The position numbers were made by a program, and so were the translations under genes. A stretch of DNA of 64,000 bases from Diplolepis rosae (Eukaryota; Arthropoda; Insecta; Hymenoptera; Diplolepididae), in contig JAPYXD010000755.1 in the NCBI GenBank assembly GCA_030998225.1, forward strand, positions 1,240,001-1,304,000, in the 5' to 3' direction. This document shows positions 16,098 through 63,570 of this stretch, piece by piece. A model generated the notes under the pieces. That model was given only the letters and a program-made list of their open reading frames with translations. It made no database searches and had not been told where the DNA came from. The stretch's first letter is position 1. Every line of letters starts with the position of its first letter.

Positions 16098-17942
16098 TTA
16101 AGTCGTTTCACAGGCATTGCTTAAACCAGTTTTCTTGGTTTTGATGATTGGTGGCTGTAAATTAACTAAAATTCCTGCCATTAAAACAATTGCGTCGATG
16201 TAAGGCAACATTTTCATCGTTACTTTAGACAGAATGCGATGTGTTTTGATTCGTTAGATTATACGTTCAATATGAATCCTAACACTTGCGATTTCTTCAG
16301 TTTCTACAACTTCTTTCTCAGTAAAATATTCAGCACGAAGGAAAGGCGGCATCACCAGAAGAACCTCGTTTCCTGAATCGTCTATTTTGGTTTTTATACC
16401 GGGGAAACCTTTGTCTGCTAGAACCATATCTCCAGGTTCCAAAAGATCTAACAAACCACTTCTATTGGTTATTTGCGCATCTGAGGTTCTTCCTCCACTT
16501 GTTTTGGATATAAAAGATATGAATCCATTTGGTGTACAGCCTACTAAAACTTTAAGCGTGAAACCTTTTTTATAATGCGAATAAAAATGTACACGCTCAT
16601 TGACTTGAGGTGATTGTTCCTCAGGAAATTCTGTGCAGTCGATTATAATGCGACAATTGCCATATTTTTCTTTGAAAGAATCAGGCATTAAATCTCGAAC
16701 AACTTCTCTTGAAGGCCAATGAATTATGTTTTTACATTTTCGTACCAGAATCCATAAAATTGATTTAAATTGCCGCGAAGCAGTTGTCCTGTTGTATCCA
16801 AAAATAATACCTAGAGCAGTGGAAGTTAAACTTAACTTCATTTTCATCAACAAAAGGAGCAATCGGTCTTGTTTCGACAATTTCTCATTTTTGACATCAA
16901 CGATGAAACCCAATAAAAAGTTGAATGCTAAAAATTCACACCTGCAATGTCGATCATATTTTCATCGCTTTTAATTGAATTAAACCCGTGAAATCCTTCG
17001 TTACATTTTAAATTTGATTCGCCGACAATGGGATCTGGACCGACATATTTACTTGCGTATTCTATATCCGTACCACAATTCTTATCTGCAGTTTTGTTCA
17101 TCACAGAAGGAGTACTTTTTGTTTTTGTCGTTGAAATCGATGAAATTGGAGTCGCTGCATCGCAAGTGTCACCGAGCACGATCAGATTACTACAAAAAAT
17201 ATTGCAATTCAAAGAACTATCATTTTCTAAAAAGTCCAATTGTGAGGCTTGATCCACCATGTTATTATGGCATGGAAATGGTGCTCCTGCAGTCATCGAA
17301 GTGTCACTGATTATTTGATTTCTTTCCTCTTGCTTAATTAATAGAATATTTTGACGTTTGCGACTGTTAACGTCCCCAATAACTTGCCTTTTCAATTTTC
17401 TGTTGAATCTGTTACAAAGCAAATTGCAAAATTATTATTTTTTTTTTTAATTGGACCATAATAAATGTTTCGAAATTCTGAAATAATGACCTTTCTTTAG
17501 CTTGATTGTTTGGACGTGGCTGTTTTATATAATCAGAAGGAAAAATAGTAGGCAAATAACTAGGATGCAATGGATGTTCAGACTTGGCATTGTCAATAAA
17601 ATGCGCGCTGCAAATTTTTGAATATTTCGTAGGTTGCCAAGAAGACCCGTCCACACTGAAATAATTTGCAAATTACGCCTCATATTAAACAATAAAAATT
17701 TGATCTATGGAGACATTCGAATGGTTTCACAAAATTGTTTGGTTATGTAAAATTGTCACTTACTTTATCCTACGAATCGCGTTTATCCACTGTTGCCGTT
17801 GAATATTGTTGTGTTGCTTTATCGAAAAACCATAAAATTTTATTCCCGTTGTATTACCAGAAGTATTATGACAGCCCACAACACAACACGAATGTCCACC
17901 TTTCATTTGCTTTTTGACAGCTGCAGAGTTGTTTACATTCAT
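16098..17942 (-). pseudogene. THAP-DDE transposase gene of the ISL2EU transposon
   Basis: Exon 1 (17942-17764) and exon 2 (17655-17491) together encode a THAP zinc finger, with C-V-V-G-C near the start, C-S-A-H in exon 2 and the terminal L-P-T-I-F-P box. They join in phase over a GTAAGT...TTTCAG intron of 108 bp. Exon 3 starts at 17408 after an 82-bp intron, also in phase. Between exon 3 and the transposase core (16950-16100) the frame changes, through either a 44-bp intron ending at about 16953 or a one-base indel. The core is a DDE_Tnp_4 type with D in I-D-C-T-E-F, D in L-A-D-K-G-F and E in H-I-E-R. A TAA at 16254-16256 cuts the frame a few residues after the catalytic E, and the same frame continues to 16098. 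All three catalytic residues survive. Confidence 0.85.
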
Positions 17943-20776: not shown

Positions 20777-21688
20777 CCAGGTGTACAAGTATGAAACCGG
20801 TAATGACATCTATGTGTCGCTAGGTAAAACTTTTCGCTCTGTCAAACCAAATCATTGACGCCATTTCTTCGCATTGAGTTCTGTCAACAATATTCAGTTC
20901 ATAAGCAATCAAGTTTCATACAACAACTAATTTTTTTTCGCTAGTAAAAATGTCGATTTTTGTGCCTTCAAACTACGATTTGCGTACATCATTGATTTTC
21001 TGTTACCAATTGAAGAAATCTGCTTTGGAAGCCCATCGAATGCTTGTGGAAGCTTACCGCCAGCATGCTCTAGGCAAAGCACAGTGCAACGAGTGGTTCA
21101 ATAAGTTTAAAAGTGGCGATTTCGATGTGAGAAACGAAGAACGTGGAAAACCACCGATAAAGTTTGAAGATGCCGAATTGCAAGCATTATTGGGTGAAGA
21201 TGATGGTCAAACGCAACAACAACTTGCAGAACAATTAAATGTGGCCGATTTGAATCGTGCTTTGCGCCAAAAACGTCCAGAATATCAAACTAGGCAACAC
21301 AAAGTGATTTTTCTTGATGACAATGCACCAGCACATCGAACAAAAATGACTCGGGAATTGGTAAATTCGTACAGCTGGAAAGCCCTCCCCCATGCGGCTT
21401 ATTCACCAGACTTGGCTCCATCTGACTACCACTTATTTTCATCAATGGGGCACGCACTTGCTGAACAGCGCTTCGATTCGTACGAAAATGTGAAAAAATG
21501 GCTCGATGACTGGTTTGACTCAAAAAACGAACAATTTTTTTGGCGAGGCATACACAAATTGCCAGAGAGATGGGAAAAATGTGTGGCTAGCAATGGCCAT
21601 TACTTTGAAGATTGAATGTATAACCATTTTTATTAAATAAACGTGTATTTTCTGAAAAAAATTACCGGTTTCATACTTGTACACCTGG
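20777..21688 (+). mobile_element. Internally deleted mariner with perfect 28-bp inverted ends and TA duplication
   Basis: The ends start CCAGGTGTACAAGTATGAAA and are identical inverted copies over 28 bp, flanked by TA at 20775-20776 and 21689-21690. The element is 912 bp against about 1.3 kb for complete mariners, because the middle of the transposase gene is missing. Perfect ends and an open frame suggest recent movement, presumably mobilised in trans. It lies inside the 18740-22540 element. Confidence 0.93.
20950..21615 (+). CDS. Mariner transposase, in-frame internal deletion, catalytically incomplete
   Basis: The ORF has 221 codons against about 345 in the family. The N-terminal helix-turn-helix region is present up to the Q-Q-L-A-E-Q-L-N-V motif (about residue 102). 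The frame then jumps directly to L-N-R-A-L-R-Q-K-R-P, so the linker and the first catalytic D (T-G-D-E motif) are gone. The second D (L-D-D-N-A-P-A-H) and third D (A-P-S-D-Y-H-L-F) remain, 34 residues apart (DD34D). The deletion kept the frame. The product might still bind element ends and act as a repressor, but it cannot transpose by itself. Confidence 0.9.
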   Translation: MSIFVPSNYDLRTSLIFCYQLKKSALEAHRMLVEAYRQHALGKAQCNEWFNKFKSGDFDVRNEERGKPPIKFEDAELQALLGEDDGQTQQQLAEQLNVADLNRALRQKRPEYQTRQHKVIFLDDNAPAHRTKMTRELVNSYSWKALPHAAYSPDLAPSDYHLFSSMGHALAEQRFDSYENVKKWLDDWFDSKNEQFFWRGIHKLPERWEKCVASNGHYFED

Positions 21689-24104: not shown

Positions 24105-26080
24105 CCAAAAAAAAACCCCTCTCTCGAACCAATACACCGCCCGCGGAACCGCCTTTCGGCTTTAAACTTCACGGGTGGTTGGTTTCAGCTTAAAGTCGCG
24201 TACGACTCTTCCGTCATCCGTTCGCCTGGGACTCCTATCCGCGGACACATGCCCGTTAGGCAGGCCGGTCGACGCTGACAGCCAAGTCCGCCCAAGAAGC
24301 AGGACCGTGGGTGCAGGCCCCGATGCGATTTCTACTGGCCCTCTTGTTGCCGCGCTCTGCGCAGCCCATCGAGCTCCCTCGTATTCATCACCAGGGTAAC
24401 AAATGACTCGATAAGCATCCATATCTGTTCAGACTGGAGCATGAGAGAGACCATCCTGTCAGGAGTGAGTTGTGCGCCCACTGCCTGACCGACAGCCTCC
24501 CTTTCCGCGCCCCACCTGGCACTGACAAAGTTTGTTAAGCAGGTGAGCTCCTTCGGGAGCTGAAAGGTCTCCTTCCTTTCCTCTGACAATAAATCTATTG
24601 GTGGGACGCTCGCCAGGACCAGCGCAGCGCTCCTCGACACAGTTCGGTATGTTGAGACAATTCTCAGCACCACACCTCTCTGTGCTGAGAACAGCTTCTT
24701 CTGGATAGCATGGTTGTTAAGGGCACTTGTCCACTCGCCACCAGCCTTCTCTTGGCTTTCTTGGGGCCACCAAAGTTAGGCATGAGCCGAGTCAGAGCGG
24801 CTCCACATTGGATGGCTTTGGCAGTCGCGATATGCAGGTGTTCGCCGAAGCTAAGCCTTCGATCCAACTGCACAGCCAGGTACTTAATGCTCTTTTTCCA
24901 CTCAATTTCATGTTCCCCGAGAACGATCTTCGGGGATTTAAAGGATGTACGTCCGTGACCAGCAAATTTTCAGTCTTTTCAGGGGCCATTTTCAGGCATC
25001 TGCTATCCAACCAACGTTTTGCCCGCCAAAGACTTTTATTGATCCTCAGCTCCGGGATTCTGACGTCGTCAGCGGCGCACACGACCAGTGCGTCAGTCGC
25101 GAAGCCGATGATGCTCGTTCCAGCAGGTAGGTCCATGCGCAGGAAATCGTCGTACATGACGTTCCAAACGAGTGGGCCCACTCGTGACCCTTAAAGTGCG
25201 CCACGTGTCATCTCTTCTTTGAGAGACCACATTTCGCCCTCGTATATCACCCACCAGTCGCTCAGATAGTCATCTATCATTCGCAGCTGGTAGTCTGGAA
25301 CCTTTTTCCGCACCATCGCCTCAATGCAGACGTTCCACCTCGCGGTATTGAACGCAATGCGTATATCAATGCTGATCAACGCGCAGAATCCCTTACGCTT
25401 ACCAGTTCCTCTTCTTACTTTAGTGGCGATGTCCACCACTGCCTGGATGGCGTCCACTGTGGACCTGCCTTTCCGAAAGCCGAACTGGTTTTCCGAGAGA
25501 CCGTTCTCGCCGACCATTTCCTCTAGAAGCTTCCCCATTGTATCCAATAGACAAATAGGTCTATACGATGAGGCATCTTCTAGAGGTTGGTTGCTGTCTA
25601 CGAAGAACCTCCCCTCCCGAAGACAGGAGTTGGAGGCTTCCAGGAGGATCAGCGGGTATGTTCCGATCACCTCTTTGAGGATCTCGTTTGGCACCCCGTC
25701 GATACCCGGCGCTGTATTTGCCTTAAGCCTCCCACCCGCTCTCTTTAGTTCCTCGAGAATGAAGAGTTTTTCGCGCTGGACCACGCAGGAACTTCGGTAC
25801 TGTCTTTGGAACGGCTCTACGTGTGGAAACAAGCTCCGTACAATGTACTTGACTCGATCGGCATTATCCAGGCCTGGGGTGTTTCTTCTAGTCACCAATC
25901 TCTTAGTGACTATTTAGAAGGCGATACCCAGTGTGTCCTTCTCGACTTCCCCGATCAAGTCTTTCCAGCACTGAAGTCGGCTTTGCTTTATGCCTGCCTC
26001 AAAGCTGATTTTGCTCTTTTCCATGCCTCGCGCATTGTTCGAAGGGCTACGGCGCATCCACCGATTCATTTCAGTCTTGT
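24105..26080 (-). pseudogene. R1-clade non-LTR retrotransposon ORF2 remnant (RT and C-terminal region)
   Basis: On the minus strand the frame enters at about 26060, upstream of the RT, with C-W-K-D-L-I-G-E-V-E. RT motifs follow: T-A-P-G-I-D-G-V-P-N-E, S-S-Y-R-P-I-C-L-L-D-T, E-N-Q-F-G-F-R-K-G-R-S-T and S-I-D-I-R-I-A-F-N-T-A. The catalytic F-A-D-D box is altered to F-A-T-D. TAA stops lie in the main frame at 25914-25916 and 25191-25193, and a frameshift near 24900 moves the thumb and C-terminal region to other frames (to about 24160). The apurinic endonuclease domain is missing, so the copy is 5' truncated where it meets the Tc1 remnant. Confidence 0.88.
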
Positions 26081-27052
26081 TCGAAGTATTTTTGTGCACC
26101 CATGCACGCGGACCGAAGTGCTTAAAAAGTCTAAGCACTTCGTGCAAATGTGGGTAGAGCGGTATAGGGACACAAAAACCGTCGATGACCTGCCAGGGAA
26201 AGGAGAGACGCGAGCAACGTCCAGTAAGGAGGATAAGATGATCGTTGCACTGTTCAAGCGCAACCCAACTCTCCGGCTGCGTGAAGCCAAAGCTAAGCTA
26301 GCGGAGAAGGGACTACACGTTAGTATAAACACCATAAGACGCAGATTAGCTGAGGCGAAACCCCTGCTTTCAGAGGTTCACATGGAAAAACGCTTGGCTT
26401 GGGCTACGGAAAATGTTGATCACAATTGGTCCAATGTACTTTTTTCGGACGAAGCGTCCTTTTAGGCATGAGTTCCCATAAAACGTGCCTGGTCACCCGC
26501 TGGTGAGCGTTTCCTCTAGCGAACTGTTAAACATCCCATAAAGATCCATGTTTGGGGATGCTTCTCACAGCGCGGTTTTGGCTGTTTAGAGCTTTTTACT
26601 GAGAACCTCAACGCTCAAAAAATGCTTCAAATCTACGAACATGGCCTTCTGAGATCTGCAGAGAAGATGTTTGGAGCCAACAATAAGGATTGGATCCTTG
26701 AAGAGGACAAAGACCCCAAACATCGCAGTTACCTCTGCACGTCCTGGAAAGCAGAAAAGGGCATCACGAACTTGAACTGGCCTTCACGATTTCCTGATGC
26801 GAATCCAATGGAAAATGTGTGGAGTGTCGTGAAGAGCAAACTTGCAGGAAGGCGTGCATTTACCCTGAAGCAGATCTCTCGACGAATTAAGGAGAAGGTG
26901 CCAGGGCATTATTCAGAACAACGGCGATTGGACGGTTTATTAGGTGAGTATGCCCTAGTGCTTTATGCGCACTGTTGTGCCAAAAAAGAAAAATGAGGTT
27001 TTCTTCAAAACTTTCCGAGTAAACGCATACCTTTTCTTGTGGAACAGACTGT
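26081..27052 (+). pseudogene. Tc1-type transposase remnant, 5' truncated, right inverted end kept
   Basis: The frame holds a helix-turn-helix (K-K-S-K-H-F-V-Q-M-W-V-E-R-Y), a first D in L-F-S-D-E-A-S-F, a second D in E-E-D-K-D-P-K-H and an E in N-P-M-E-N-V-W, 34 residues after the second D (DD34E). TAG at 26463, TGA at 26469 and TAG at about 26517 interrupt the same frame, which ends normally at 26996. The right terminus gaacagactgTA (about 27042-27053) matches the ends of the Tc1 at 60346-62643, so both belong to one family. The left inverted end is absent. Confidence 0.85.
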
Positions 27053-56167: not shown

Positions 56168-56671
56168 ATGGCATCCGATCAATCTGAATGGTTGACATGG
56201 CCGTACCTCGTGCAACCTTTTCAAAGTAAACTAAGTGTACTTGTCAAAAATGCATTTGCGCTAGAGGATTGCGCTGATTCGTATGCCATTTTAGGCCATG
56301 TCCGTTACATTTCCGGTTCTGGTATATTCACTGAATTGCAGCAAAACCATATGAACTCATACCGAATCCCCAAAGTTCCACCTTTCTTTTGTGAAGACCC
56401 TTCCTCATGGATCCTATAAATCGAATGCTTCTTTAACCAGGTGCATATCGTCCACGAAAGGACAAAGGTGGACTTTGTAACCGCAAACCTTGATTTCGAC
56501 GTGATAGCTCACGTTATGGATCTTCAAACCGCGCACTCTTTGCACGCAGACACTTGTACTCTAATTAAAAACCAGATATTATCCGAATTTTCTGCTTCAT
56601 CGAAAAGTCGGTTTCGCAAGTTTCTGACGGGTGGAGCTCTTGTCCATGTCCCTGATTTTGATACGTCAGTG
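56168..56671 (+). pseudogene. Ty3/gypsy gag fragment, split by the Transib-like element
   Basis: One frame with a TAA at 56417-56419. The motifs V-P-P-F-F-C-E-D-P-S-S-W, V-T-A-N-L-D-F-D-V and L-I-K-N-Q-I-L-S-E-F...R-F-R-K-F-L-T-G-G match the capsid region of insect gypsy gag. The frame is cut at 56671 by CACAGTG. The gag text resumes at 63419. Confidence 0.8.
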
Positions 56672-57341
56672 CACAGTGGTCTGAAAAAGGAATTTTCTGT
56701 TCATAATCGACTATAGGTCGTATTTCTTAACGGATTTTGAATTTTCTTTTCTAGAAATTCTCAGCATTCAATTTTTAAGAGAATTTTCGATCACGATTTT
56801 TTAATTCTCATAGGACAGAATTTATTAATATATTACTATTAATATTCAAGTTGATTATTGTAAATAATTTTTTTAAACAAATTCTTACTTGCGTGTATTT
56901 ATCGTCAAAAACATTGTTTATTTCACTCTTATTACTAAGATTTTTCATAAGAGTCATAATGTGCACCGAAAAATTCACATAAATTGACAATTACTATTGT
57001 GATAAACGTTTTTATGAACGAAATCTCATCTCATCAGTTTTAATTACAGATAGATCGACTTTTCGGACCAGAAGTGGTTCATAATTGCCTTCAAAAGCAT
57101 TTTTAAACTTCAATCGTGATTAAACTTGAAAGGAAAAAATAATGTTTTCCAATTATTGTAGGAATGACATTTTTTGTGATAATTAACGAACGAAATTAAT
57201 TAAAAAGTAATTTATATGATTGTGATTAAAAAAATTTCAACTAAAAACTTGAATTTATCATTTTTTCTTAAAAGTAAGCCGTTTTTTACAGAAATTATCT
57301 ACCAATAAGTTAACATTGATTCTAAGGCTGTATATGAGATA

Positions 57342-59327
57342 CTACATAACAATTTGTATAATTGTTAATAACATTTTATATGAAAAAATGTCACAATTTG
57401 CCGTTTCATAGTGGAAAAAAATAACTTTTTCATCAATTATTGTTGAGATAAGCTCAATTGTGATACGTAACCAATAATCGGTCGTGGATTCGAATTGTTT
57501 GATTAGTTCTTCGATTTCATGATCAAGTTCAACTTCAACTTTTTTCCATTCAGGCGTTAAGGATGCAGTGAAAAGATCTGAGGACTCAAGAAATTTGTGA
57601 ATGTGGTCGTGCATAGTATGCCAACGACATATCTTTCGTGTATTGAACTGTCAAATATACTTGACATACGAGTTTTGAGCCTAGGAAGCCTCTTCGGAAT
57701 ACATGCCAATTGGTAGCATAAAATTCTCCATAACTTTTCCCCCATGTAGCAGTATTTTGTATTTTGTGAGCTGAAGAAGGCATGCAGTACCATGGATATA
57801 AGCTCACATAGAGTTTTGCCGTCCTAAAATCATACTCGTTGAAAAAGAGAGGGGGAATTTCTCTGCTACTAGCTAGCATTTGTATTACGTTCCTGAAAAT
57901 TTCAATCGTTTTCTCATTTACTCCAGTTATTTCTGAACCTTGACGAATATCCGAGAAAAACTGGCGAGCCTTATTACCACAATTAGAGTTGCCAGATCCT
58001 TGACTTGAATGATCAATTATTAACCCCATCTTCTCCTTAAATATCTTATCCAGGCATGTAATGTAGAAAGACCAAATTCAAAGTTGAATACAATTTCTGT
58101 TTTTTGCTTTACATGCTCTAGATCGTTCATTTCTTATGATGTCGCTCTGCAAATGTAGCAAGTAGAAGATTATGGAGCATCGGAGAGAGCTGTAGACACT
58201 TTTCCATCCACCATAGTTAATTTCATTTCCGCTGTAACTATGTACATGTCATTAATCATGGTAATTGTTGTGGGACTAAGTTTCTGAATTTAAATTTTGA
58301 AATTGTTAGTTTCCTATTTTGTCAATTTATTAGTTTCCTTTACATATTTAAGCATAATTGGTATACAAAGTTTTGGTGAGGAAGTATGAGGATCCATCCA
58401 AACTGTTTCGGACGTGTTTTTCACCTTTAAGCATATGCACCATTGATGCTTTACACAATGAGTCATCAATCAAATTGTTGTTACTAAACTTCTGATTGTA
58501 TTTTGCATCAGTTGACCAAATAAGACCAAATAAGTGATCTTTAACCTATTCTCTGAAAGCGGAAGACATAAATTCGTATCTTTAAAGAGACGTTTAATAG
58601 TGTGATCCATGAGAAACTGAATTCTAACAATGGCTCCTCTCCTTCCGAGATATGAATATCTAAAGGGTAGCAATCTTTTTTAATCTCTAATACATTCTTA
58701 CAGGAAAAATAAATGTCAGCATTTCTTTCCTTAGCCTGCAAATGAATAGTATTATATGGATGCTTTAACAGTCCGACTTGTTACATAAAAATTGAAGCTT
58801 CTTCTGAAGAGTACGGCACAGATGATTCGCATTCAGATATACTGGAAATGTTTAGGTTTTTAGTATTCTTGGAATTTAAAAGAACGACCGTAGCATTTGC
58901 AATTTTTTTCTCCCACTTGTCCGTAGATTTCGCAAAAATGCATCCTGTATCTCAGCAACCGTGAAATTCTTTTCAATGGACATTAATTTTCCTCTCTTTG
59001 TCGCTGTAGAAGCTTCTTCGAACTTTATACAATAACTTTTCCTACCCTCTTTTGTTTTTATCCTGGAAAATGTAACAATGAAGTCAGTGTTCAGCCATTT
59101 TTCAAACTTCTTTTCAAACTGACTTTTTGAAAATGAAAATTATATACATTTTTATAAAAGACACCTGAAAAATACAAATGTAAATGATTAGATACTATTT
59201 ATAGATGTTCAGGATCAAGACTGTACTCAGTTTGTAAGAAACTTAACAAACCTTGCACGTCAGGTTTCTCATAGGTAATAAGAAAGACCCGAAGACCCCT
59301 CTTACGCACTTTAAGAGTATCCATCAT
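57342..59327 (-). pseudogene. RAG1/Transib-like transposase gene, several frame breaks
   Basis: ATG at 59327 (minus). The core has the RAG1-like order. A catalytic-type D lies in T-M-V-D-G-K (codon 58207-58209). Then come a C-Y-I-C zinc pair (about 58150), L-S-T-L-H-A-W-I-R (about 58060), K-M-G-L-I-I-D-H-S-S-Q-G-S-G (from about 58025), an A-R-Q-F-F motif, P-W-Y-C-M-P-S-S-A-H-K-I with a second H about 5 residues on, and S-E-E-A-S (about 57700), the position of the catalytic E. In RAG1 the zinc pair, the H-x4-H pair and the final E follow the same order. Stops lie near 58165, 58135, 57692 and 57655, with frameshifts near 58655, 58025 and 57770. The C-terminal codons run into the left inverted arm. 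The family assignment is inference from motif order plus termini. Confidence 0.65.
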
Positions 59328-60454
59328 TTTATTTTTTATTACTAATGGTATTATAGTAATTGAACAAAATAATAATAATCAGAAATAATAATATAAACAA
59401 TTAAAATGTACAAACCTGCATGAGATATTTTAAAATGACGCCAAATGTCAATCATTCATATAAAAAAGTTTCAGTGCAGCCTAACTTGTTTATATGAACC
59501 AAAACTAATATTCCTCTTACGAGAGCGCGTTAAAGAGACATCCACCTAGTGACGAATTTCGAACTATCACTTTTAGCGGGAATTTGGAATCGTCTTTAAT
59601 CAAAATGGTTCATCTGGATAGTTTTTTCAAACTATCCAAAGAATTGAAATAATTTCAGGTAAACAGATATCATAATGTTTACAAATATTTTATTTTGGAT
59701 CAATAAATTATATAATTGTTCATAAAATTATGATTATATTAAACCTCAATGAAGAACAAAGTGGTGGCCAGTAGTAGTAATATAATCGCTTTCTCCATGT
59801 GAAAATAATAAATGTAGTTTTGTTCATAAAATTGTTTATAGCAAACATATATAATTTCTCAATCAATATTGTTCTTTACGTATCACAATTTAGCTTATCT
59901 CAACAATAATGAATGAAAACATCATTTTTTTAAATCTAGTTTTAGAATCACTGTTAGGTTATTGGCGGATAATTTCCGTAAAAAACAGCTTTTTTGTATG
60001 AAAAAGTGATAAATCTAAGTTTTTGGTTAAAGAATGTGTATAGTAATCATATAAACAATTTTCTTATTAATTTCGTTGGCTAACACGTTGAATGCCACGA
60101 GGGTCACCGGTGATCGGCACTCAACTTAGCAGTGACGCCATCGGGGCCACCGGTGAACGGCATCGCATAATAGAAAATTCATCAATAATTTTCTTCTTTT
60201 AGTTAATTTAAATTAAGTTTTAAAATGCCTCTGCAGACAATTACGAATCACTTTTAATCCGAAAAATTAATGTATCTGTGATAAAAACTGATGAGATGAG
60301 AATTCGATTATAAAAATGTTTATAACAATAGTAATTGCTAACTTACAGTCTGTTCAACAAGAGCGAGTCCTCGATTTTTCGAAAACTATTAGAAATTTTG
60401 AAACGTTTTTTTTTTATAAATAAAAGTACTCTCGAAGGACTACGGCGCTACTAC

Positions 60455-60715
60455 CTAATAGATAGTCCAGTCCCCATCGTTGTCCAGAATGGTCTGGCAC
60501 CTTTTCGGCGTGCTTTCCACTAATTTTTCAGCGTACATTTTCGATTGGATTCGCATCAGGGGACTGTGATGGCCAGTCCAAAGTTGTGATGCCATTTTCT
60601 GTTTTCCAGGCGGTGCAGAGGCGGCTTCGATGTTTCTGGTCGTTATCTTCTTGTAAGATCCAATCGGCCGTATCGGCTCCAAACATCTTTGTAGCAGACC
60701 TTAGAAGACCACGTT
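60455..60715 (-). pseudogene. C-terminal part of the Tc1 transposase
   Basis: In the relevant minus frame it reads L-L-R-S-A-T-K-M-F-G-A-D, Q-E-D-N-D-Q-K-H-R (second catalytic D) and N-P-I-E-N-V (E). It then goes out of frame. It is separated from the N-terminal part by the LTR-like insertion. Confidence 0.8.
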
Positions 60716-60720
60716 CATAT

Positions 60721-62218
60721 TGAGATGCAGGTTCTACCCGTGACCTGGCAACTCTTTAAACGGGCTGGCCCAACTAATTTTCTCTAGTATAAAATATACC
60801 TGAAAATAAAATATTCACTTAAAGGACTTAGTTGAGCGCCAGTCACCCAGGTTAGTGACGATATTTATTTAGAACAATGATGAGACTCGAAATTCCAGAA
60901 ATCAACACAAGGCGAGGTCAAACAATGTCACAACAGATTACCGGGTAATAATTAAAACACCAGAATTTAATTAATTAACATGTATCGGCTTAACAAGATT
61001 TATTGAAACAAATCAAAATGGATTTACTAAAAGCCTAAAATATGTACATTGATTTTAATAAACGCAGATAAAATGAAATATAACGGAAATCTCGGAAAAT
61101 TGCCGAGTCACGCGACAATATGGCGAATTACGTACATTCCCGCGCGTCGCCACCCGAGAGAACTAGACTTGACTAATTTATTTTAATTATTCAATTTCTT
61201 TTTCTGTCTAACCATCAAAGAAAGGCTACCGATATAACAAAAGGGCACTCGCGAAAAAGAGAGAGAAGAGAGGTGAAGTGGCTGCGGTGCATGTGACAGA
61301 CGCCATAAAACGTTCAAGTCAATTTATACTTATGCTCGGAATTCCGAGCCACTTGCCAAGAGAAAATTTAACCAAAGTCACTCACGCTACCTGTATGATA
61401 TCCTCCGTAATTGGGTCGAACCGTGGTACAAACTCATCTTCCATGGCTCGAAAATCCTTGTCTTAAATTTCTTTAAGGAGACAAAAGCGTGAGACTTGTC
61501 TCTAATATTCGCAGGACGAGAGTGACGATGGCCGACGCGACGCTGACAGAATTCCCGACCTGCCCCACGAATTACATGCGTGACCCAATCCCGGACCCGG
61601 AAACAGGTCACATGTCAAACATCCAATAGACGACTAGGCAACTCGTGTCTAGTATAATAATTGCCCTCGGCAAATAATTTCCATCAACACGCGGTTCTAT
61701 CATTTGCAACGAACGGCGCGTGTGGTATAATGACACCATTGTAATTAGTGTTCATTTACATCAAACTGCACAAATTTAGTATCACAAAATGTCTAAGATA
61801 CTAAATATCAAGCCCCAGGGTCAATGCGCCCTAGGGTACGTTTTCTGGGTCACGTGGTGGCGTCTGGTAGTCTTTGCGTCGCTCTCCAACGATCGATGGC
61901 GGCGATAATCGAAGCGTCGATCTATCGTGGCTCAAAACTCGACATGGCGGTCAATGTTAACATGGACTCGGTAGCCGGCTGTGCCTCATCCTCGACGCTG
62001 CTGTCCTCCGGTGGTGCTGTCCTCGTATTGCCCATGGAACAGACGGGACAGGAAGCGTGAGTGTGTGATTAGTGTATTTCGAGTGCTCTCGGGTGACGAA
62101 GAAGTGCGGGCTCTCGTCACACGACTTTTTCCCCAGGGACATAACCCCACCTGTCATACCGGTGAGTTTACCAAATTAAATATTTTCAATGTGACGGGTA
62201 AAATTTACCACGTCACAA
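60721..62218 (-). mobile_element. 1,498-bp LTR-like insertion (probable solo LTR) with CATAT duplications
   Basis: CATAT flanks both sides (60716-60720 and 62219-62223). On the minus strand it starts TTGTGACGTGG and ends CATCTCA. It has no ORF of a retroelement protein, which fits a solo LTR. A related terminal stretch occurs at 46900-47000. The superfamily is not determined. Confidence 0.65.
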
Positions 62219-62476
62219 CATATTTGGAGCATTTTCTGAGCATTCAAGTTCTCGGTGAACAGCTCTAAACACCAAAAACCGCGCCGTGAGAAGCATCCCT
62301 AAACATTTGCATCTTTCAGCAAGATCGTCGACTGTTTTATTGGCTTTATAACGCTCAACCCACTTCTTCACGAACGATTTCGACTTTTTTATGTATTTAA
62401 CAGCGGCTGTATGGGACATAAGTGGTCCCTTTGGATGGGTACACAAGAAGACCGCTTCAAAACGTTTCGCGTACAC
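62219..62476 (-). pseudogene. N-terminal part of the Tc1 transposase
   Basis: It encodes F-L-C-T-H-P-K-G-P and the helix-turn-helix K-K-S-K-S-F-V-K-K-W-V-E-R-Y, then V-D-D-L-A-E. The sequence then jumps, by internal deletion, to a region equivalent to L-F-T-E-N-L-N-A-Q-K in another frame. The first catalytic D lies in the deleted part. The fragment is cut at the LTR insertion point. Confidence 0.8.
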
Positions 62477-62927
62477 AGAACTCGTTATGACTCGCGTCTG
62501 TTCTCTCGGACAATTCGAGCGCTACTGAATTGCTTTGGTAATTGCGCCGTAGTCCCTTGAATGTACTTTCATTAAAAAAAAAAAGTTCAAAAATCTCTAA
62601 TAGTTTTCGAAAAATCGAGAACTCGCTCTTGTTGAACAGACTGTATGTGCATTTTTTGAAGCAAATTATGACTTATGAAAAATCTCAGAAATTAGAGAGG
62701 AACAAACTATTTTTTCGACGAGAAATACACCCAAGAAAGAATTTGTTTATAAAAATAATTTATTATAATTAAATATTAATAGAATTATTTTCTTTCTATG
62801 AGAGCAGTTGCAATAATTCTGGCTGATATTTTTCTTTAAGTTAAAAATTTACAAAGCTGAAATAGCCAATTTTGTCTATGTATTGTTGCTTTGTGGAAAA
62901 AATTGAAAAATCGCAATCGACAATTCT

Positions 62928-63308
62928 CACTCAGAAAAATGATTTGATTGAATCAAAGAAAATGATTTGTTTGAACGACTTTCTTTGAATTAAAGAAATG
63001 ATTTGTTCAAATGAAATAAAATTTGTTTGATTAAAAAAAAATATCTTTGAACCAAATAAATATTCGTTTGAATCAAATTAATTTTTCTTCAAAACAAAGA
63101 AATTAATGCATTGATATATGGTTAAAGATATAATTTGTTTGATTTAAGGCAAAAATTTATTTGATTCTAACAAATATTTATTTAGTCCAAAGATATTTTA
63201 TATGAATCAAACAAATTTTGTTTCATTAAAGCAAAACATTTCTTTACATCAAAGAAAGTGTTTCAAACAAATAATTTTTTTGATTACATCAAATATTTTT
63301 CCTGAGTG
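62928..63308. mobile_element. 381-bp MITE with CACTCAG ends and TTCT duplications
   Basis: The ends are CACTCAGAAAAATGATTTG and, inverted, CACTCAGGAAAAATATTTG. TTCT lies on both sides (62924-62927 and 63309-63312). The interior is made of many degenerate tttgattcaaa/tttgaatcaaa units. Its removal restores the Transib-like right arm. Confidence 0.85.
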
Positions 63309-63418
63309 TTCTTTTGAATTTAAAGCTGAGAATCTATAAAAAACAAAATTCAAAATCGGTTAAGAAATACGACATATAGCCGATTATGAACAGTAAATTC
63401 CTATTGCGGACCACTGTG

Positions 63419-63570
63419 CAGCGCGCCCTGAACGCCGGTAATTGTAGTAACGAAATCATAAAGGCTATTTTTATTACAGCCTCTAGCTCTAGTTAGGACC
63501 ATTCTGGCCATGTTGAATGTCGACGACGAAGTTCGTGAAACTATCGATGTTCACTATCATTCATAATTAC
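63419..63570 (+). pseudogene. Continuation of the gypsy gag fragment
   Basis: It reads R-A-L-N-A-G-N, then after a frame change V-R-T-I-L-A-M-L-N-V and E-V-R-E-T-I-D-V, which fits the part of gag expected after F-L-T-G-G. It is separated from its first half only by the element at 56672-63418. Confidence 0.65.

What the first reader, a model, noticed from the sequence alone, without database searches (positions are those of the whole stretch)
56672..63418. RAG1/Transib-like transposon whose ends are exactly CACAGTG
Both termini begin CACAGTG, the heptamer of V(D)J recombination signals, and are flanked by near-identical pentamers (CAGTG/CAGCG). The internal minus-strand gene keeps a RAG1-like order of motifs (D in T-M-V-D-G-K, C-x-x-C, H-x4-H, E in S-E-E-A-S). 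Transib is the known ancestor-type of RAG1, with similar ends and 5-bp duplications. The ~790-bp inverted arms are far longer than the ~40-bp ends I associate with Transib, so this may be a distinct lineage. I see no clear nonamer after the heptamer.
Basis: partly seen in the sequence, partly recalled or inferred. Interest (0 to 1): 0.88.

Follow-up and report, generated by a model that had tools for sequence, protein, structure and literature searches.

The report
Dead Transib transposon with long arms
This is an old, broken copy of a Transib DNA transposon, the known relative of the RAG1 enzyme of our immune system; its ends match the immune recombination heptamer, as already documented for this group, so it looks like an ordinary member rather than a new lineage.

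Summary
The stretch 56672-63418 is one DNA transposon with CACAGTG at both ends, CAGTG/CAGCG beside them, and inverted arms of about 800 bp (584 of 708 aligned bases identical). Its minus-strand remnant is a Transib transposase: the only solved-structure match below E 0.4 is 6pqn (E 5.9e-54), which I recall as HzTransib, and the two best relatives are 43% identical. A Tc1-like element and a hairpin element interrupt the right arm. The window's own 758-Mb genome gave 58 arm matches, a lower bound. Of 21 copy ends read, 10 begin exactly CACAGTG. Of 15 other Transib loci there, 11 show inverted arms of 283-755 bp and three show perfect 5-bp duplications. Hztransib was described in 2007 with 'long TIRs' and a 5-bp duplication (PMC1852546, passages). 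Long arms are therefore weak evidence for a distinct lineage. No RSS nonamer was found. Verdict: a decayed member of a known kind; low interest.

The parts
56667..56671 (.). 5' target-site duplication CAGTG
   Evidence: sequence; the 3' partner differs at one of 5 bases
56672..57480 (+). left terminal inverted repeat, starts CACAGTGG
   Evidence: 584 of 708 aligned columns identical to the right arm
57481..59327 (-). degenerate Transib transposase gene (start near 59327; conserved C-terminus ends near 57489, next to the arm)
   Evidence: 6pqn E 5.9e-54
57681..57683 (-). TAG stop at the position of the catalytic Glu (HzTransib E436)
   Evidence: alignment, codon; E436 from PMC6941560 (passage)
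59866..60345 (-). right inverted repeat, inner part (with a small unmatched G+C-rich stretch around 60084-60170)
60346..62643 (.). nested Tc1-like element, TA on both sides, ends CAGTCTG...CAGACTG
   Evidence: the left arm shows the uninterrupted sequence at this place; related stretch at 26540-26818
60722..62218 (.). 1.5-kb insert inside the nested Tc1-like element, flanked by CATATT on both sides
   Evidence: the related stretch at 26540-26818 lacks it
62646..62927 (-). right inverted repeat, middle part (includes the TTCT duplication of the hairpin element)
62928..63308 (.). nested hairpin element (MITE-like), ends CACTCAG...CTGAGTG, flanked by TTCT
   Evidence: (81% self-complementary)
63309..63418 (-). 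right inverted repeat, terminal part, ends CCACTGTG
63419..63423 (.). 3' target-site duplication CAGCG

Best explanation
The stretch is an old, inactive copy of a long-armed Transib DNA transposon in a genome that looks like an insect's. When it was active, its single transposase would have bound both CACAGTG-ended arms, cut the element out with hairpins on the flanking DNA as HzTransib and RAG do, and pasted it into a G+C-rich 5-bp target, duplicating it. Shown here: Transib kinship, ends, arms, target preference and decay. Inferred from the literature on Hztransib: the cut-and-paste mechanism. The copy then decayed and took in a Tc1-like element, a further insert inside that, and a hairpin element.
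For: 6pqn, listed as 'Putative DNA-mediated transposase' and recalled by me as HzTransib, is matched at E 5.9e-54 in two stretches; the other 4 hits have E 0.44-0.81 and none is RAG1. The spacings of its aligned catalytic residues (99 and 211) equal those of D126, D225, E436 given for Hztransib in PMC6941560 (passage), which supports the identification. 128 relatives at E<=1e-3 (120 listed), the two best 43% identical over 99-100% of the query; one is named 'dna-mediated transposase, partial [Lasius niger]'. On a tree of 50 rows it lies in a set of 7 with support 100/100, with P0001, P0002, P0004 (Lasius niger), P0010, P0015, P0020. Of five relatives scanned, three match Pfam RAG1 at E<=1e-5, two of them above its cut-off. 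58 arm matches in the genome, the window's own included. Of 21 copy ends read in 18 of 20 loci, 10 start exactly CACAGTG; 16 of 21 outer pentamers start with C, 14 end with G, 12 do both, against 3.3% of positions in the window. Perfect CGCTG duplication at family copy L018. Perfect 5-bp duplications at Transib loci L040 (CGCTG, after shifting both ends by one base), L042 (AGGCG) and L043 (GATAG). A sister copy, L010, carries transposase pieces 46-75% identical between its arms.
Against: The window's own duplication matches at only 4 of 5 bases. Of three family copies with both ends found, one duplication is perfect (L018), one is offset by a base (L021) and one does not match (L014). The second end of L010 was not found. 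The four Transib pieces and the joined read-through match no transposase family in Pfam at E<=1.
Confidence: 0.97

Rival explanations
1. A RAG-like (ProtoRAG/RAGL) transposon with RAG1L and a lost RAG2L gene.
For: CAC-type ends and 5-bp duplications are shared by RAGL elements (PMC7204232, passages).
Against: The protein matches 6pqn and no RAG1 chain. The 120 listed relatives are 25-45% identical, the best 43% over the full query, while Transib and the RAG1/RAG1L proteins analysed share less than 22% (PMC7204232, passage). No second gene of 80 aa or more was seen between the arms outside the nested inserts.
Confidence: 0.01
2. A CACTA/Chapaev-type element (CMC group) that converged on these ends.
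For: C(2)C and H(3-4)H motifs are shared by EnSpm, Mirage, Chapaev and Transib, and the wider group mostly has CA..TG ends (PMC12730594, passages).
Against: Direct protein kinship to Transib. Transib's duplication is 5 bp (PMC7204232, passage), as at L018, L040, L042 and L043.
Confidence: 0.01
3. A distinct, new long-armed Transib-like lineage.
For: Arms of about 800 bp here and 714 bp aligned in family copy L018. Four of 15 other Transib loci show no arms within 1.5 kb.
Against: Arms of 283-755 bp in 11 of 15 other Transib loci of this genome, though these were picked for similarity to P0001; 'long TIRs' described for Hztransib (PMC1852546, passages); the transposase falls within a set of other Transibs.
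Confidence: 0.05

Closest known systems
Hztransib / HzTransib (Helicoverpa zea; PDB 6pqn, name of the entry recalled)
   Same: Transposase homology E 5.9e-54; catalytic spacing; 5-bp duplication and 'long TIRs' (PMC1852546, passages).
   Different: This copy is dead: broken frames, TAG at the catalytic Glu, nested inserts. The length of the Hztransib arms is in a figure that I could not see.
Transib transposase relatives P0001, P0002, P0004 (Lasius niger)
   Same: 43-45% identity; same tree set, support 100/100.
   Different: Ends and arms of those elements could not be read.
RAG1 / RAGL (ProtoRAG) elements
   Same: CAC-type heptamer and 5-bp duplication; weak Pfam RAG1 match of some relatives.
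   Different: No RAG2-like gene seen, no nonamer, no RAG1 chain matched.

Membership tests
Transib | transposase homologous to HzTransib | tested here: met
   6pqn E 5.9e-54 (entry recalled as HzTransib)
Transib | terminal repeats beginning with a CAC-type heptamer | tested here: met
   both window ends CACAGTG; 10 of 21 copy ends exact, 9 more differ by one or two bases, 2 by three or more
Transib | 5-bp target-site duplication | tested here: met
   window 4 of 5 bases; L018 perfect, L021 offset by one base, L014 not matching; L040, L042, L043 perfect
Transib | C(2)C and H(3-4)H between second D and last E | tested here: met
   CYIC and HKILLH in the joined read-through, with a frame break between the two His
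Transib | complete D-D-E triad in this copy | tested here: not met
   catalytic Glu codon is TAG; residues after the first Asp are missing. I read this as decay of the copy: both Asp are invariant in the 18 relatives aligned.
RAGL/ProtoRAG | convergent RAG2-like gene | tested here: not met
   no such reading frame seen between the arms; only frames of 80 aa or more were listed and no RAG2 profile was run
RSS (V(D)J signal) | nonamer at 12 or 23 bp from the heptamer | tested here: not met
   1-2 of 9 matches at those spacings; best in the first 60 bp 5 of 9, which chance gives

The most novel reading that the evidence does not exclude
This genome carries several Transib families with full-length open frames and long inverted arms that are still 94-96% identical (L029-L032), CACAGTG ends being visible at L031 and L032. 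Some may still be moving, and their long arms may serve the transposase beyond the terminal heptamer.
Probability: 0.35. Interest if true: 0.35.

Novelty: new member of a known kind. Interest (0 to 1): 0.17.

Why it matters
It adds a decayed family to the Transib superfamily from which RAG1 is thought to derive, and shows that in one genome RSS-heptamer ends and long inverted arms are common among Transib loci. It does not change the accepted account.

Tried and rejected
Pfam on the separate frames and on the joined read-through found no transposase family; the solved-structure search settled it. Searches of viral contigs and prokaryote genomes gave no relative. A search with the 5' flanking gag-like piece found nothing, so the insertion site was not confirmed by relatives, although the 84-aa piece before the insertion matches Pfam DUF7041 at 5.5e-7. 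Paper searches: (0 papers). One search listed 11 papers holding 'Transib' and 'long TIRs'; of these I opened only PMC1852546 (passages). PMC8355894, PMC9435367, PMC6941560, PMC7204232 and PMC12730594 were also seen in passages only. The 2005 Transib/RAG1 paper is not held. A search of the genome for other copies of the coding region did not complete, so coding copies of this family elsewhere are uncounted apart from L010.

Full report
What is there. The stretch 56672-63418 begins and ends with CACAGTG read inward, and CAGTG / CAGCG lie just outside. The left arm 56672-57480 pairs with a right arm split into three pieces (59866-60345, 62646-62925, 63309-63418). With the nested pieces set aside, 584 of 708 aligned columns are identical, with 263 gap columns; the score is 670 against at most 127 in 50 shuffles. 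The right arm was entered by a Tc1-like element (60346-62643, TA on both sides), which itself holds a 1.5-kb insert (60722-62218, CATATT on both sides), and by a hairpin element (62928-63308, TTCT on both sides). At the Tc1 site the left arm shows the uninterrupted sequence.

The gene. Between the arms, on the minus strand, lie pieces of one protein in three frames. Three single pieces match relatives at 51-54% identity over 54-94 residues. The joined read-through matches 6pqn at E 5.9e-54 in two stretches; the other four hits have E 0.44 or more and none is RAG1. The listing names 6pqn only 'Putative DNA-mediated transposase'; that it is HzTransib is recalled, and is supported by the catalytic spacing below. 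There are 128 relatives at E<=1e-3 (120 listed, 25-45% identical), the two best 43% identical over 99-100% of the query. The joined read-through matches no Pfam family at E<=1; of five relatives scanned, two pass the Pfam RAG1 cut-off, one misses it narrowly, one is weak and one has no match. On a tree of 50 rows (49 of the 120 listed relatives plus the window copy) it falls in a set of 7 with support 100/100, on a long branch of 1.01, as a decayed copy would.

Decay. About 38 residues present in P0001 are missing after LHAWIR, and residues following the first catalytic Asp are missing. Hztransib's triad is given as D126, D225, E436 (PMC6941560, passage); the spacings 99 and 211 equal those of chain positions 109, 208 and 419, so E436 is the Glu after SEEAS. 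In the window that codon is TAG. The conserved C-terminus ends near 57489, almost where the arm begins, so the left arm fills the space from gene to end; the gene starts near 59327.

Other copies. The genome in which the window lies (757,744,533 bases, 428 contigs, unnamed) gave 58 matches to the first 301 bases, the window's own included, with 40 of 256 candidates scored, so this is a lower bound. In these, 21 ends were read in 18 loci, six of them placed by extending the match by 2-5 bases; L019 and L027 had none. Ten of 21 start exactly CACAGTG; of the other 11, nine differ by one or two bases and two by three or more. Three loci have both ends: L018 with a perfect CGCTG duplication, L021 offset by a base, L014 without a match. 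Outer pentamers prefer C at the first and G at the last place (12 of 21 with both; 3.3% of positions in the window). L018 has aligned arms of 714 bp at 84%. L010 carries transposase pieces 46-75% identical to the window's, but its second end was not found.

Other Transibs in the genome. A search with P0001 gave 76 matching rows with 70 of 963 candidates scored; at least 20 rows show an open frame of 600-704 aa with no stop in the matched part. Of the 15 loci held (L029-L043, the best matches to P0001), 11 show inverted arms of 283-755 bp within 1.5 kb of the match, several cut by the locus end; L033, L034, L038 and L039 show none. Perfect 5-bp duplications are seen at L040 (CACAGTG at both ends, after a shift of one base), L042 (CACAGTG at both ends) and L043 (CACAGTG and CACAATG); at L031 the locus ends after four matching bases, and its second end reads CAGAGTG. 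All these loci were chosen by kinship to one relative, so they show that long arms are common in this part of the Transibs, not in Transib at large.

Comparison with print. Hztransib was reported as 3518 bp with 'long TIRs' and a 5-bp duplication GCTCG (PMC1852546, passages). Transib ends resembling RSS, some with identical heptamers, are described in PMC6941560 and PMC8355894 (passages). The shared C(2)C and H(3-4)H motifs are in PMC12730594 (passages). Thus the type of ends, the duplication, the motifs and long arms are each in print for Transib; the length of the Hztransib arms was not visible to me. No nonamer: 1-2 of 9 at spacings 12 and 23, best 5 of 9 in the first 60 bp, within chance.

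Conclusion. A dead member of a known superfamily. The finding's identification was good; its suggestion of a distinct lineage is not supported.

Noticed in passing
56168-56671: The 5' flank carries a remnant whose second piece (56420-56671) matches Pfam DUF7041 (5.5e-7); I recall this domain from insect gypsy gag proteins. The Transib seems to have landed in a retroelement remnant, and by eye a gag-like piece resumes after 63423.
   Followed up: partly
60722-62218: A 1.5-kb insert inside the nested Tc1-like element, flanked by CATATT; of unknown type, possibly a solo LTR (its end reads TGTGACG...CGTCACA).
   Followed up: no
60094-60162: Two 26-bp G+C-rich near-repeats in the right arm with no counterpart in the left arm.
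   Followed up: no
2-2866: Long open frame with RNase H and integrase domains of a retrotransposon, by look Ty3/gypsy-like.
   Followed up: no
16254-16913 (-), 20950-21615 (+), 25191-25898 (-), 25806-26465 (+): A DDE_Tnp_4 transposase, a mariner-like (HTH_48) remnant, a reverse transcriptase piece, and a Tc1-like (HTH_Tnp_Tc3_2) remnant.
   Followed up: no
L029, L030, L031, L032: Transib loci elsewhere in the genome with open frames of 644-648 aa without stops and inverted arms 94-96% identical, a sign of recent activity.
   Followed up: partly
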